Below are positions 19,791 to 59,686 of a stretch of 64,000 nucleotides of DNA, piece after piece (position 1 is the stretch's first letter; the number at the start of each line of letters is the position of its first letter). Origin of the DNA: Methanocorpusculum labreanum Z (GTDB lineage Archaea > Halobacteriota > Methanomicrobia > Methanomicrobiales > Methanocorpusculaceae); NCBI RefSeq assembly GCF_000015765.1, contig NC_008942.1:759921-823920 (forward strand). The letters run 5' to 3'. The notes beneath the pieces were generated by a model that worked only from the letters and a program-made list of their open reading frames with translations, was not told where the DNA came from and searched no databases. The translations under genes were made by a program, and so were the position numbers.

Positions 19791-20074
19791 GGATATCTCC
19801 ACCGCGGGACGCTCCACGCCGGATCGCAAATCTTTGGTTTGCTCAGCTGAGGTCGGCCGCTTTCAGCGTCCAACCCGCAGTCACCCCCCGCACCCCGGAA
19901 TGAGAAAAAAATAACAAACAAAAAGAAAAACCCGCGGGCGGGTTTTTCCCAGCATTTTTCCAGACGGCGTGCGATTCCTGCGCAGGCGATCAGCCGGAGC
20001 AGAGCACGGCGGCGCAAGAAAAATGCGATTCGCGTTAATTCGCGAGGATTCGCGGTTGGTTTTTCTCATGTGTC
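19791..20074. repeat. Composite intergenic repeat (block B, hairpin module, block D)
   Basis: Starts with GGATATCTCCACCGCGGGAC (block B, also at 26.8, 49.1 and 56.4 kb), then a hairpin GCAAATC-TTT-GGTTTGC with CTCAGCTGAGGTCGG and CAACCCGC (hairpin module), then CCCCGCACCCCGG. From 19926 a second unit begins with hairpin AACCCGCGGGCGGGTT and runs through GCGATTCCTGCGCAGGCGAT and AGCCGGAGCA (block D, also at 49.2 kb), ending in GATTCGCGGTTGGTTTTTCT, which is the end sequence of block A elsewhere. No coding content; it fills most of the gap between isf and fdhD. Confidence 0.8.
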
Positions 20075-43528: not shown

Positions 43529-44323
43529 ATGACGGACGCTGGTATGTCTGAAGATCCCCTTCTGTCGATCCAGCAGAGATTGATCTCCTGCGGGATGCGG
43601 GAGTATGAAGCCAAAATCTATGTGACTATTTTCAGCCGCGGGATTCTGACCGCTTATGAGATCCATCAGTTCAGCGGTGTTCCCCGCGGCAGAGTGTACG
43701 ATGTTTTAACGGCTCTCGAGCAGAAAGGCTTCATTTCACGTTCATGGGAGAAACCGGTCTATTATACTGCCGAGCCGGTGGAAAAGGTCTCGATTCGTCT
43801 GGTGAAGGATACGCTGGCAAATCTGGAACATATGACCGACTGTCTCAACGAACTTCAGGATGTCTGCTATCCCCTGGGAGGAAAAATCGTCGGCGTGCAT
43901 GAATTCCAGACCGATCTTGCGATCGACACGCAGATCCGGATGGAACTCAGACGTTCCTGCAAGGAAGTTTTGATTCTCTGTTTCGATGAGCGGATCCTGC
44001 AAAGGTATGCCGATGATATTAAGGAAGCCGCAAAACGGATCCCGGTGTATGTCGTCGTTAAAGATAAGAAAATGGCAAAGTTCTCTCCGATAAAATGCTA
44101 TATGGTCAAACGCGGGATCCCTATGACGACGATGGAGATGCCGGTCTCCTCCAAAAAACAGCGGCTCCCCGTCCTTGCACAGTTCTATCACGATCGTCAG
44201 GGCACGATCGCGATTCTTGAACATAAGGGTCAGATGATCTGTCTTGGTCTTGTGAACAATGTTTCGGTGTTTGTGGCGCAGAGTATTCTTCAAAATATCG
44301 AACGGATCGATCCGGAAGAGTGA
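43529..44323 (+). CDS. TrmB-family transcriptional regulator
   Basis: 264 residues. N-terminal winged helix (MREYEAKIYVTIFSRGILTA, PRGRVYDVLTALEQKGFI) and a C-terminal ligand domain (VLILCFDERILQRY, ITFIILL-like strands absent, AILEHKGQMICLGLVNN). TrmB proteins sense sugars or other metabolites and repress or activate transport and metabolism genes. A second in-frame ATG at 43544 is possible. The target may be the divergent SDR gene. Confidence 0.88.
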   Translation: MTDAGMSEDPLLSIQQRLISCGMREYEAKIYVTIFSRGILTAYEIHQFSGVPRGRVYDVLTALEQKGFISRSWEKPVYYTAEPVEKVSIRLVKDTLANLEHMTDCLNELQDVCYPLGGKIVGVHEFQTDLAIDTQIRMELRRSCKEVLILCFDERILQRYADDIKEAAKRIPVYVVVKDKKMAKFSPIKCYMVKRGIPMTTMEMPVSSKKQRLPVLAQFYHDRQGTIAILEHKGQMICLGLVNNVSVFVAQSILQNIERIDPEE

Positions 44324-44351
44324 GTTCGGCAGCTTTTCGTTCCAACCCGCC

Positions 44352-44565
44352 CATCACACGAACTTCACAAAAAAGCCCACGAAAACACGAAAATATAAAG
44401 AATAAAATACGGTGGGAAAGATGTAGTGCTCTCCCCCATCCCTCGCAAGTCTATCGACTTGCTCGGCTGAGGTCGTCGACTTCGTCGCCAACCCGCCCCC
44501 ACACGAAATTTTCGAAAATCAACGAAATGCACGAAAAGGGGGGGCAGGGGGTGGAGGTATAGGGG
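44352..44565. repeat. Second, incomplete copy of the MITE-like element
   Basis: Left part CATCACACGAACTTCACAAA and CCCACGAAAACACGAAAATA match the left arm at 20934-20982. The middle is a hairpin module, GCAAGTC-TAT-CGACTTGC, with TCGGCTGAGGTCGTCGACTT and CGTCGCCAACCCGCC. The right part CAACGAAATGCACGAAAA and its G-run follow the inner right arm of the first copy, but the distal right arm is missing. Confidence 0.65.
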
Positions 44566-44614
44566 GGTTGGGTGTGAGATTCGGGATGGTGTATGGGAGG
44601 GTGTGGAAGCATTA

Positions 44615-44762
44615 GAAAAACCAACCGCGAATCGGCGCGAATCCGCCCTTCGGGCGAGCGAATCGGATTTGCTATTCCTCACTCTCGCAATCCAGCTACG
44701 CTGTCTTGCTCCCCCCTCATCGGGAACGTTCGGGCAAATCCTTTCGCCGCCCCAGCGGCTCA
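44615..44762 (+). repeat. Intergenic repeat block A, left bracket of the nuclease gene
   Basis: Begins GAAAAACCAACCGCGAATCG, contains hairpin CGCCC-TTC-GGGCG and CACTCTCGCAA, and ends GGGCAAATCCTTTCGCCGCC then CCAGCGGCT. It matches the reverse complement of 46788-46942 and the direct copy at 59488-59686, with different sequence in the two variable hairpin positions. Confidence 0.8.
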
Positions 44763-44831
44763 TACTTTTCTTTATTATGTTCTCAATCAACGTAAATCTA
44801 TTTCTCTTGCTTAAACAACACAATACATATT

Positions 44832-46745
44832 ATGGGTACAATAAAAAATGATTCAAAGTCAGAATTGGGCACACTCGGAGTGAATAAAGTATATGGAGCA
44901 ATTGGTTGTTATGATATTCTTTCTGATGCCCGAGCATTTACTTCTTGGATAGAGAAATAATATCCGGATATCAATATACACGAACTCTTTCCCGGTTATT
45001 CATACTGCATTGATTTAATTGTGGGGCTGTTTGCTAGAGGAATTCATGATGACGAAACATTTGGATTAACATCTGATATTGCTTTTGACCGCGCTGTGTT
45101 CTATGGAATTCCTCCTGAGAAAATGGATCTCAACTGTGAAAAAGGACGTTTACTTTATATCCTGAAGGACAATGTTACAAAGATCAATTCATCAAAAAAC
45201 TTTTCAAAATCCCGACATCCACTCAACGACTTAAAGCGTAATGTTCTGGATATCTTTGCCAATCATCTCAAAGAAAATGCCTATTCAAATCTTCCTAATC
45301 CTAAAAACGAGTTATATTCATATTTAATTGAAGGAACTGTATGGCTGTATTTTTCAAATATTGTGGGTCGTGGGATTCCATACGCTGAGGCATCAACTCC
45401 ATTACGTTCCGCTAATGAGAAGGATGTAATAAGAGAGGAAACTCCTGAATGGGAGGAATACATAAAATCAGATGAGTATGGGGCGAAGGACACTCTTATT
45501 CGAGGTTACTGTTATTCTCTGGAATATCTGATAGATCAACTATCTCCAAATTTACTGGATACAGAATCTTTGAACTATTTACATAATATTGATAATTGGA
45601 ATGAAATCAATCATATTTTTGACTATTTATATAAACAAATATTTATCAATCTTGATAAAATCCATGAAAATATCTGGTATATTTCTTCATTCAAAAATGA
45701 TAAGAAACTTTCAAAAAAGTCACTTTCAACTATATTTGACAAATCAATAAAACTACCTAAAAAATCATTAAAAGAACAACTAGACCAAATTTTTCTTTGG
45801 TATGAGGTGGGTTTTCTTGATGCTTCAGCTGGCCCTTTCTCTGGAATGATCGCTCTCAGGACATTGTTGACAGGAGCAGTTACTAAACAAAAGGAAAGGG
45901 AAATTTCAGAACCAATTCAGATTCGCATTTTCAAACATCAATGTTTTGCGGGTTATAATTATAGTTATGCAATTCTGATGGAAGGGTATGGCTTCGCAAT
46001 GGATTATTCTGGTTGGATTGTATTTTTTGATACTGATACTGATTATTCGGGAACAAGTGGTCATTATCATCAGTTGATTGATAACGATATTCAACGATAT
46101 AAGGAATATCTTAATGTTGTTTCATTTGAGGTTAAAAAAGAGAAATTTGAAGATTATGTTATGGGAATTGATGCTGCAACCCAAAATGGACATTCGGTTA
46201 CGGTCATTAAACGCCAAGATAAAGAAATAGAGCGAGCAAATCAGAAAGTACGTGAAATCCAAAACAAGCTTCAAAGAACACAAGATGTACTTCATTCTGC
46301 AAGGGGATTGATAATGGAATTGCTGACATATTATGATTTATCTCGCAATCCCGACACTTCAAAGAACTTAGATTGGAATATTGCTCAAAATAAACATGAA
46401 ATTGATGTAACCTATGTGCGTAATGATGATACCGTAATCTTTGGGGAATGCAAGGTTTCAGCGAAGACAACTGATCTTGATGGAGAGATGAAAAATCTGG
46501 TTAATAAAATGAAAAATTGGCAACCTAACGTTGGTAATAAAATGGGACATTTCTTCTTTTTTGATGAATTATCTGAGACGGAAGTTGCCAATTACAATAA
46601 ATTAAAAAAGAAGCATTCTCGAGGTGATGTGGTTATAGGTGAGTATGATGTATTATCTGAAAAGATATACTGGGATCAAAATTGGAAAAGTAAGGCTAGA
46701 GATAAATTAGACTATATTCTGAAATATAATGATAAAAAAATATAA
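44832..46745 (+). pseudogene. PD-(D/E)xK nuclease-like gene with an early in-frame stop
   Basis: From ATG 44832 one frame runs to 46745 (637 codons), broken only by TAA at 44958-44960 (codon 43). The remaining 574 codons from GTG 45021 could still be made, but no ribosome-binding site is evident. A large alpha-rich region is followed by a coiled coil (KEIERANQKVREIQNKLQRT) and a C-terminal domain with EIDV (Asp525) and FGECKV (Glu539, Lys541), a PD-(D/E)xK nuclease arrangement. Strong AT bias, and bracketed by inverted repeats. Probably a transferred defence-type gene, recently inactivated or sequenced with an error. Confidence 0.7.
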
Positions 46746-46787
46746 AAATCATCATATTGTTTGGTAAGGATGCTAACTGATTCTTAT

Positions 46788-46942
46788 GGGAGCCGCCGGG
46801 GCGGCGACAGGATTTGCCCGAACGTTCCCGATGAGGGAGGAGCAAGACTGCAAAGCAGGCTTGCGAGAGTGAGGAACAGCAAATCCGATTCTGGGAGCCC
46901 GTAGGGCTCAGATTCGCGCCGATTCGCGGTTGGTTTTTCTCA
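46788..46942 (-). repeat. Intergenic repeat block A, right bracket of the nuclease gene
   Basis: Inverted relative to 44615-44762. On the minus strand it starts ATGAGAAAAACCAACCGCGA and ends TCCTGTCGCCGCCCCGGCGG. Variable hairpins: GAGCCC-TAC-GGGCTC where the left copy has CGCCC-TTC-GGGCG, and GCAAGCCTGCTTTGCAGTC where the left copy has a different stem. Starts 42 bases after the nuclease stop. Confidence 0.8.
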
Positions 46943-47035
46943 TGCACCCACAACAATCCCGTACATGAAACCAACGTGCACTTCCGCAAAAAAGAGAAAA
47001 AACCTCTTCCGAATCAAATAAAAAGACATCCCGAC

Positions 47036-47195
47036 GTGGGACGCTCCGCGCCGAATCGCAAGGCAAAGCCTTGCTCGGCTAAGGGATCTAAAGATCCCCG
47101 CCTCAGCTGAGGTCGTCGACTTCGTCGCCAACCCGCAGTCGCAAGTTTCCTTCGAAAACTTGCTCAGCTGAGGGCGAGCCTATCGGCTCACCCCG
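47036..47195. repeat. Array of distinct hairpins joined by GCTGAGG-type linkers
   Basis: After GGGACGCTCCGCGCCGAATC (end of block B) come GCAAGGC-AAA-GCCTTGC, linker TCGGCTAAGG, GGATCT-AAA-GATCCC, a TCAGCTGAGG linker, GTCGTCGACTTCGTCGCC and AACCCGC, GCAAGTTTCCTTCGAAAACT then TGC, linker TCAGCTGAGG, and GGGCGAGCC-TAT-CGGCTCACCC. It ends two bases from the stop of the aldehyde dehydrogenase gene and may serve as its terminator. Confidence 0.75.
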
Positions 47196-47197
47196 CT

Positions 47198-48565
47198 TCA
47201 CCCAAACAGAATACTCTTCGGCTCCGTGTACTCATACACGAAGTCCCGTCCGTTTTCCCGTCCGAATCCTGAGTTCCCCACCCCGCCAAACGGCATCTCC
47301 GGTGGAAGCGTCAGATGCTTGTTCACCCAGACGACCCCGCACTTCAGCGACTCGGCAAACGTACGGGCCGTTCCTATATCGGTGGTCCAGACCGAAGACC
47401 CCAGGCCATACTGGGTGGAGTTTGCGATATCGAGCGCCTCGTCGGGAGTATTGAACGGGATCACCGACATCACCGGTCCGAAGATCTCCTCCGAGACCGC
47501 GAGCGGACTCACGTTTTTCAGCAGGGTCGGCGCGTAGAAGTTGCCGGGTATCTCCAGTCTCTTCCCGCCGTAAACCAGCTGAGCGTCGCCATTAGCGAGG
47601 ATGTTTTCCACCGACGCTTCTATCTGGGCCAGCTGATCGGGATTGTTCACCGGTCCCATATTCACTTTTTCAAGACCGTTTCCAACAACGTAGCCCGAAA
47701 GCATAACCTCGGCTTTGTGCACGAACTCATCGGCAAGCGATGCGTCGACCAAGATCCGCTTGGCAGACGTGCAGACCTGGCCGCAGTTGTAGAACCGGTT
47801 TCTGACCGCCGCTTTCACCGCGGCGTCGATGTCGGCCGTCTTCGTCACGATGAAACTGTCGTTCCCGCCAAGCTCCAGCGTCAGTTTTTTCAGATGCGGG
47901 GCGGCCAGAAGCGAAACCGCCTTTCCAGAAACGACCGATCCGGTAAACGAGATGTGACGGACATCCGGGTGCGAGACGAGCGCGGCGCCGGCCTCTCCGC
48001 CGGATCCCGTCACGATCTGCAGGGCTTCTTTGGGAAAGCCTCCTTCGTACAGGGCCTCGGCGATCTTTAAGATCGTCAGAGACGCAGTCTTCGACGGCTT
48101 TGCAAGAACCGCGTTCCCGCAGGCAAGTGCGGCTCCTGCTTTCCACGCAAAGATCATCACCGGCATGTTCCAGGGAATGATCGCGGCGCAGACCCCGAGC
48201 GGTTTTCGAACAACGTTCAGATAGCCGTATCCCGGAAGATTACGGGCATCACCCGGGATACTCCCCGAGACCGAGGCATAATACTCGAATACATGGGCGG
48301 ACCCGAGGATCTCGTCACGTGCTTCCCGAAGCGGTTTTCCCTGTTCGGTCGTCAGCAGAACGGCAAGTTCCTCCACCCGTGCCCGCATCAAAGACGCGGC
48401 GTTCACAAACATCACGGCACGCTTTGATGCTGCCGTCTTCTCCCAGGTCGGCAGGATATCGGCGGCCGCATTCACAAAATTGTCCACATCATCGGGCGCG
48501 GCGTTTGGTATTGTGCCGATGACTTCATTCGTGGCAGGATTTCTCACGTCGAGAGATGATTGCAT
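47198..48565 (-). CDS. NAD(P)-dependent aldehyde dehydrogenase (succinate-semialdehyde type)
   Basis: 455 residues. Catalytic Cys in YNCGQVCTSAKR, general base Glu in LTLELGGNDS, cofactor loop FTGSVVSGKAV, and C-terminal EEIFGPVMSV. Sequence resembles succinate-semialdehyde/lactaldehyde dehydrogenases. Substrate not decided. Single gene, divergent from the thioesterase, with its stop codon beside the hairpin array. Confidence 0.9.
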   Translation of the reverse strand: MQSSLDVRNPATNEVIGTIPNAAPDDVDNFVNAAADILPTWEKTAASKRAVMFVNAASLMRARVEELAVLLTTEQGKPLREARDEILGSAHVFEYYASVSGSIPGDARNLPGYGYLNVVRKPLGVCAAIIPWNMPVMIFAWKAGAALACGNAVLAKPSKTASLTILKIAEALYEGGFPKEALQIVTGSGGEAGAALVSHPDVRHISFTGSVVSGKAVSLLAAPHLKKLTLELGGNDSFIVTKTADIDAAVKAAVRNRFYNCGQVCTSAKRILVDASLADEFVHKAEVMLSGYVVGNGLEKVNMGPVNNPDQLAQIEASVENILANGDAQLVYGGKRLEIPGNFYAPTLLKNVSPLAVSEEIFGPVMSVIPFNTPDEALDIANSTQYGLGSSVWTTDIGTARTFAESLKCGVVWVNKHLTLPPEMPFGGVGNSGFGRENGRDFVYEYTEPKSILFG

Positions 48566-49106: not shown

Positions 49107-49320
49107 GGATATCTCCACCGCGGGACGCTCCGCGCCGGAGTCGCGTCCCCGCACCCCAAATCAAAATAAAATGAATGATACCTCAACAGAAAAACCCGCA
49201 CGCGGGTTTTTCCGATAGCATTTTTCAAGTGAGGGTGCGATTCCTGCGCAGGCGATAAGCCGGAGCATAGCACCCGAACGTAAGGAAAATGCGATTCGCG
49301 AGGATTCGCGGAGATTTGCG
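49107..49320. repeat. Composite repeat (blocks B and D) upstream of mcm
   Basis: Block B (49107-49158): GGATATCTCCACCGCGGGAC, GCTCCGCGCCGGAGTCGCGT, CCCCGCACCCC. Block D (49190-49320): hairpin AAAAACCCGC-ACG-CGGGTTTTT, GTGCGATTCCTGCGCAGGCG and AAGCCGGAGCATAGCACC, ending GCGATTCGCGAGGATTCGCG. The same order of blocks occurs at 19791-20074. A short GGTTGGTTCTTTCTCATCCA at about 49385 repeats the end of block A. The rest of the gap to 49488 holds the mcm promoter. Confidence 0.8.
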
Positions 49321-49487
49321 GTAAAATAATCTCTTGTCTCCCCACCCAACCTTACCCTTTCCGAATCTCAGCCCTTATTCGCGGTTGGTTCTTTCTCATC
49401 CATCACCACGTGGCCCTATCCCTCCTTCCTAGAAAAAATGACAGATTCATATCACCTCACGCCAAAGTATAACGATTATGGAGGAGC

Positions 49488-59487: not shown

Positions 59488-59686
59488 GAGAAAAACCAAC
59501 CGCGAATCGGCGCAAATCCGCCCTTCGGGCGAGATAATCGGATTTGCTTCTCCTCACTCTCGCAAGTCTCTCGCAAGGCAAAGCCTTGCTCGGCTGAGGC
59601 CTCCCCTGCGGGTCAGCCCGCCCTCGACTTGCTCGTCCCTTCATCGGGACCGTTCGGGCAAATCCTGTCGCCGCCCCAGCGGCTCC
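59488..59686 (+). repeat. Intergenic repeat block A with an inserted hairpin module
   Basis: Begins GAGAAAAACCAACCGCGAAT and ends CCTGTCGCCGCCCCAGCGGC, same ends as 44615-44762 and the inverse of 46788-46942. At the second variable hairpin it carries an added module GCAAGGC-AAA-GCCTTGC, TCGGCTGAGGCCTCCCCTGC, GGGTCAGCCCGCC, which makes it about 50 bp longer. It ends 137 bp before hsdM. Confidence 0.8.

What the first reader, a model, noticed from the sequence alone, without database searches (positions are those of the whole stretch)
44615..46942. Nuclease-like gene bracketed by inverted repeats and split by one stop codon
Seen: block A copies in inverted orientation at 44615-44762 and 46788-46942 enclose only the gene at 44832-46745 and its AT-rich sequence. 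The gene is open over 637 codons except for TAA at 44958. Its C-terminus has a PD-(D/E)xK layout (Asp525, Glu539, Lys541) after a coiled coil. Inference: a transferred nuclease cassette that moved or recombined through its flanking repeats and was recently silenced, or is regulated by inversion between the repeats.
Basis: partly seen in the sequence, partly recalled or inferred. Interest (0 to 1): 0.72.

Follow-up and report, generated by a model that had tools for sequence, protein, structure and literature searches.

The report
Repeat-bracketed defence cassettes in a methanogen
In a methane-making archaeon, a broken nuclease gene sits between two mirror-image repeats that, elsewhere in this genome and in its relatives, enclose other anti-virus defence genes and can hold different ones at the same chromosomal site, which suggests these repeats are the ends of exchangeable defence cassettes.

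Summary
Two ~150-bp arms (91-93% complementary) bracket one 637-codon gene with an in-frame TAA at codon 43. The C-terminus carries a PD-(D/E)XK nuclease motif: E496, D525, E539 and K541 are invariant in eight family members. The arms are not unique. They are a dispersed, genus-restricted family (14 inverted pairs in this genome). The short copies sit in MITEs with TAGGANTTACGCGGTGT ends and 6-bp target duplications. Gene-sized pairs enclose defence genes: type I R-M, Dcm/Vsr, Gabija, Dsr1, CRISPR-Cas I-C, PDDEXK_3 nucleases and, in a second arm family, PD-Lambda-4. At one site, one species has an unknown 1133-aa protein and a relative has Gabija between the same flanks. At another, Dcm/Vsr is replaced by HEC-01A/OLD/Fic. 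At the window's own site the gene differs between two species at dS 0.22, its neighbours at 0.62-0.66, so it was exchanged separately from its flanks. Best reading: a transposase-less, MITE-ended defence cassette carrying a new single-gene candidate defence protein with interchangeable C-terminal domains, probably disrupted in this strain. Regulation by inversion is not supported. Structure prediction failed; nothing was tested experimentally.

The parts
44602..44762 (+). left arm (block A), hairpin-rich, with the first bases of its outer extension
44832..46745 (+). gene X: 637 codons, new family with a conserved N-terminal module and a C-terminal PD-(D/E)XK domain
44958..44960 (+). in-frame TAA, codon 43; frame intact in the G039 orthologue
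45021..46745 (+). longest intact reading frame (GTG start, 574 aa), possible shortened product
46275..46742 (+). PD-(D/E)XK nuclease-like domain; E496 at 46317, D525 at 46404, E539 at 46446, K541 at 46452
46788..46952 (-). right arm (block A, inverted)
59490..59685 (+). left arm of a second cassette of the same family, carrying a type I restriction-modification system (its HsdM and HsdS genes follow in the window; HsdR and the right arm lie beyond the window end)

Best explanation
The locus is a non-autonomous, MITE-ended cassette that carries one defence gene. The ~150-bp arms are the subterminal parts of a Methanocorpusculum MITE family (shown by shared sequence). In the short form these elements have TAGGANTTACGCGGTGT terminal repeats and 6-bp target duplications, so the family has transposed (shown). 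In the long form the space between the arms holds a known or candidate defence gene or operon (17 of 18 pairs, counting candidates). The cargo is exchanged independently of its chromosomal neighbours (shown by different cargo at the same site and by dS). I infer that exchange happens in two ways: original insertion by a transposase supplied in trans, and later replacement by homologous recombination through the similar arms. Gene X is inferred to be a single-gene defence effector: a conserved N-terminal sensor or assembly module coupled to an interchangeable C-terminal effector, here a PD-(D/E)XK nuclease that would cut DNA on infection. In this strain it is probably inactive because of the early stop.
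For: Arms: 14 inverted pairs in G000, also in G039, G042, G028 and G029, none outside the genus among 31 genomes. MITE ends and duplications: TIR pattern 45 hits against 1 for the control; 22 complete elements, mean 4.64/6 flank matches against 3.22 shuffled, 0 of 10,000. Cargo: type I R-M, Vsr+Dcm+GHKL+response regulator; Gabija, Dsr1, CRISPR I-C, PDDEXK_3, DUF4062. A prediction written down beforehand for three unread pairs of a second arm family gave PD-Lambda-4_A (1.7e-78), a DUF4062-like protein, and one YdjM-like protein. All five PDDEXK_3 genes of G000 lie inside long inverted repeats. Same site, different cargo. Decoupled divergence: gene X dS 0.22 [0.17-0.29] against 0.62, 0.62 and 0.66 for neighbours; the reverse at the PDDEXK_3 site (0.63 against 0.17). 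Type I R-M cassette: homology to G042 stops within a few bases of the degenerate TIR. Gene X homologues neighbour R-M genes in G269 and G420. C-terminal domain swaps: PD-(D/E)XK in most, Schlafen AlbA_2 in G157, another in G001.
Against: The window's own copy has no intact outer TIR and no target duplication, so its mobility today is not shown. No autonomous partner was found; DDE_Tnp_1 is absent from G000 and other transposase families were not searched. At one swapped site (L014/L111) about 190 bp inside the right arm is shared, so the exchange point there was not in that arm. One enclosed gene (YdjM-like) is not a defence gene. No background rate of defence genes was computed for the genome. 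No defence model recognises gene X itself. Arms of a pair differ by ~10%, so recombination through them is not recent.
Confidence: 0.68

Rival explanations
1. The arms are only insertion-tolerant landmarks: MITEs land in already variable defence islands, and pairs around defence genes are a by-product of tolerated insertions, with no role in moving the cargo.
For: Intergenic variable regions accept insertions; short MITE pairs also occur next to ordinary genes; some defence loci have only one arm (L110, L111).
Against: Enclosure is tight and inward-facing: one system per pair and no housekeeping genes, for pairs found by arm sequence alone. Single 450-bp PDDEXK_3 genes are individually bracketed five times out of five in G000. 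For type I R-M the boundary coincides with the MITE end.
Confidence: 0.2
2. A phase-variation device: recombination between the arms inverts the gene to switch it on and off.
For: Long inverted repeats allow inversion; the central tract of the arms is swapped between G000 and G039, and the GAAC-type arm variant changes sides at the L012/L074 site.
Against: Same gene orientation in both genomes. The gene lies wholly between the arms, with its own upstream sequence. Arms enclose multi-gene operons of up to 10-12 kb, including genes in both directions.
Confidence: 0.05
3. The cassette is as described, but gene X is not a defence gene; it is a nuclease serving some other role, such as mobility of the element.
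For: No defence family model matches it and its N-terminal module has no known fold; another PD-(D/E)XK family (PDDEXK_3) is a repeated cargo.
Against: The family occurs in other archaeal families without these arms and beside R-M genes; C-terminal effector swaps are typical of conflict proteins.
Confidence: 0.2

Closest known systems
Mobile insertion cassettes (MICs, e.g. MIC231 of Bacillus cereus, cited in PMC6542083; qnrS2 cassette of Aeromonas, PMC5444012)
   Same: Passenger gene between transposon-type inverted ends, no transposase, thought to move in trans
   Different: Here many unrelated defence cargos share one end family in an archaeon, the ends include ~150-bp hairpin-rich arms, and cargo is swapped at fixed sites; trans-mobilisation not shown
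TIMEs and their composite derivatives (Tn3-derived miniature elements, PMC4133298)
   Same: Miniature inverted-repeat elements that form composite elements around captured DNA
   Different: TIMEs are Tn3-related and usually single copy; here duplications are 6 bp, the TIR differs and the family is multicopy
Defence islands and defence hotspots
   Same: Variable defence content at fixed chromosomal positions
   Different: Each system is individually bounded by a recognisable repeat pair
PD-(D/E)XK nuclease superfamily (weak matches to DUF234, NERD, Card1/Can2 endonuclease, PDDEXK_9)
   Same: E-D-ExK motif order in the C-terminal domain
   Different: N-terminal ~450 residues belong to no Pfam, PADLOC, NCBIfam or PDB family found here

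Membership tests
MITE / mobile insertion cassette | terminal inverted repeats | tested here: met
   Family level: TIR TAGGANTTACGCGGTGT, 45 hits against 1 control in G000. Degenerate or missing in the window's own copy.
MITE / mobile insertion cassette | target-site duplication | tested here: met
   Family level: 6 bp, 22 elements, 0 of 10,000 shuffles reach the observed mean. Not found at the window copy.
MITE / mobile insertion cassette | passenger gene without transposase | tested here: met
   Cargo lists
MITE / mobile insertion cassette | matching autonomous element or demonstrated trans-mobilisation | tested here: inconclusive
   DDE_Tnp_1 absent from G000; other transposase families not searched
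PD-(D/E)XK nuclease | E-D-ExK catalytic residues conserved | tested here: met
   Invariant in eight members
PD-(D/E)XK nuclease | core fold | tested here: inconclusive
   Model pLDDT 32; PDB profile matches to AF1548 and Can2 not significant
PD-(D/E)XK nuclease | nuclease activity | not testable with these tools
   Needs an assay
Known anti-phage defence systems (PADLOC) | match to a curated model | tested here: not met
   No match for the window protein or its intact orthologue
Rfam structured RNA (arms) | match to a known RNA family | tested here: not met
   None in 44000-47500

The most novel reading that the evidence does not exclude
Methanocorpusculum uses dispersed, hairpin-rich inverted arms as docking sites: any arm-bounded defence cassette entering the cell can replace the cargo at any arm-bounded site by recombination through the arms, giving a modular, genus-wide exchange system for immune genes without a dedicated integrase.
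Probability: 0.3. Interest if true: 0.85.

Novelty: new variant of a known kind. Interest (0 to 1): 0.66.

Why it matters
How defence systems change places in archaeal genomes is poorly known. If MITE arms bound exchangeable immune cassettes, the arms become a search tool: whatever lies between a long pair is a candidate defence gene. That logic correctly pointed to PD-Lambda-4 and a DUF4062-like gene here, and it nominates gene X and the 1133-aa protein of L012 as new systems. The shared N-terminal module with swapped C-terminal effectors is itself a testable new family.

Tried and rejected
Structure prediction of the read-through protein with the one eligible homologue: pLDDT 32, so no fold search was run. 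Profile comparison of the nuclease domain with PDDEXK_3: no similarity. PDB searches: no significant hit. Arms as a structured RNA: no Rfam match, and only 1 of 28 predicted pairs has changes on both sides, so selected structure is not claimed. Gene X in phages or viral contigs: none; only a weak relative on a Haloarcula plasmid. Exchange exactly at the arms in every case: rejected for L014/L111. The 4.2-kb TIR pair at L089 as an autonomous element: no transposase recognised by eye. Literature searches found no description of this in Methanocorpusculum; the library is incomplete.

Full report
What is there. The gene is open over 637 codons apart from TAA at codon 43, and the segment is markedly AT-rich. 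The genome is a single 1,804,962-base contig. I recall this size as that of Methanocorpusculum labreanum, but no tool named it; a distant homologue lies in a record titled Methanomicrobiales archaeon, and the genus name is used here on that basis.

The arms are a family. The left arm matches 48 places in this genome. They form 14 inward-facing inverted pairs: eight short ones of about 0.4-0.5 kb, one with a second MITE nested inside, and five enclosing genes. The arms occur strongly in four other genomes of the same genus and weakly in two more, and in none of the 10 other genera sampled. Aligning the short copies outward reveals terminal repeats TAGGANTTACGCGGTGT. Twenty-two complete elements are flanked by 6-bp duplications (mean 4.64 of 6 matching, 3.22 when shuffled, 0 of 10,000). 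These are therefore transposed miniature elements. A second arm family B shares the terminal repeat and a first stretch of the arm and has about 60 hits.

What the long pairs hold. G000: gene X; an unknown 1133-aa protein (L012); Vsr, a GHKL ATPase, a response regulator and a Dcm-type methylase (L014); HsdM, HsdS and HsdR (L021, whose left half lies in this window at 59490 onward); a PDDEXK_3 nuclease (L013). G039: intact gene X; Dsr1 split in two frames; Gabija GajA/GajB; a cluster with a HerA-like protein, an HSP90-type ATPase, a radical SAM protein and a DUF3427/type IV restriction-like protein. G042: a DUF4062 pair and PDDEXK_3. G028: a type I-C CRISPR-Cas locus, a 1245-aa homologue of L012, and PDDEXK_3. 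G029: PDDEXK_3. Before reading three long pairs of family B, I noted the prediction that they would hold defence genes. They hold PD-Lambda-4_A, a protein resembling the DUF4062 cargo of G042, and a YdjM-like membrane protein, so two of three; the DUF4062 and YdjM readings of these two are by eye. Of 18 pairs chosen by arm sequence alone, 7 hold curated or probable defence systems, 4 hold PDDEXK_3 nucleases, 2 DUF4062, 2 gene X, 2 the L012 family and 1 YdjM; none holds a housekeeping gene. Separately, all five PDDEXK_3 genes of G000 lie within 137-215-bp inverted repeats. I did not compute a genomic background rate.

Exchange of cargo. At the L012 site the same two flanks enclose the 1133-1245-aa protein in G000 and G028, but Gabija in G039. 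At the L014 site the flanks (phosphoesterase, CPBP protein) enclose Vsr/Dcm in G000 and HEC-01A, OLD and Fic genes in G039; the left arms there are 96% identical while the flanks are 84%, and the right arm is missing in G039. At the cbiQ site G000 has the YdjM pair and G039 a PDC-S61-like protein with an A arm. At the window's site the relative G042, and G024, have a different 335-aa gene and no A arms. Synonymous divergence between G000 and G039 is 0.62, 0.62 and 0.66 for three neighbours but 0.22 [0.17-0.29] for gene X, so the cassette moved between the lineages after the neighbours diverged. At the PDDEXK_3 site (G000 against G042) the reverse holds, 0.63 against 0.17. Between G000 and G039 a central tract of the two arms of gene X has changed sides while inner and outer edges have not, which I read as gene conversion between arms.

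Gene X. The intact orthologue is in G039 (81% identity). A profile search of 393 genomes of the phylum finds about ten full-length or nearly full-length members in several families. The N-terminal ~450 residues are conserved and match no Pfam, NCBIfam, PADLOC or PDB family. The C-terminus varies: E-D-ExK in eight aligned members, Schlafen AlbA_2 in G157 (E 1.8e-19), and an unrelated domain in G001. In one homologue four nuclease-type Pfam families match the C-terminus weakly (E 2e-4 to 0.012). Two homologues adjoin restriction-modification genes. The ratio dN/dS of gene X is 0.47 against 0.06-0.09 for its neighbours, fitting a fast-evolving or relaxed gene. In this strain the stop at codon 43 leaves at best a 574-aa product from a GTG with no evident ribosome-binding site.

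How it most likely works. Shown: MITE-family arms, defence cargo, cargo turnover at fixed sites, exchange of gene X separately from its neighbours, conserved nuclease motif. Inferred: insertion by a transposase in trans, later swaps through the arms, and action of gene X as an infection-triggered nuclease. No transposase partner was identified (one search covers only DDE_Tnp_1).

Place among known things. It works like a mobile insertion cassette (PMC5444012 and PMC4133298 describe the kind) and meets its tested defining features at family level, though the window copy has lost its own termini. The specialisation for immune cargo, and the swapping at fixed sites in an archaeon, I could not find described.

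Noticed in passing
window 49188-49322 and 19922-20069: Single copies of the second arm family B; the one at 49188 lies in a ~364-bp stretch absent from G042 at the same gene junction (empty site).
   Followed up: partly
L012:2346-6112 and L076:1819-5553: Unknown 1133-1245-aa arm-bounded protein; split in two frames in G000, intact in G028, matches PHROG 18693 (5e-67) but no Pfam or PADLOC family: a candidate new defence protein.
   Followed up: partly
L152, L153, L154, L155 (G000): With L013, five separate single-gene PDDEXK_3 (GxxExxY) cassettes in one genome, all bracketed by long inverted repeats of at least two arm types.
   Followed up: partly
L162:1374-2832: An endonuclease/exonuclease/phosphatase-like gene bracketed by a third repeat type (CACGAAATGCACGAAAA-like) beside a family B arm.
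   Followed up: no
L139:7598-11044 and L066:4853-6859: The C-terminal domain of the G001 gene X homologue resembles, by eye, the C-terminus of a HEAT-like repeat protein encoded next to another gene X homologue in G363.
   Followed up: no
L013:2435-3001, L070, L089, L096, L106, L088: A ~188-aa protein gene of unknown function repeated at 87-96% identity near many of these elements.
   Followed up: no
L073:1999-5357: Dsr1 (SIR2 defence protein) in G039 is in two reading frames, so possibly broken as well.
   Followed up: no
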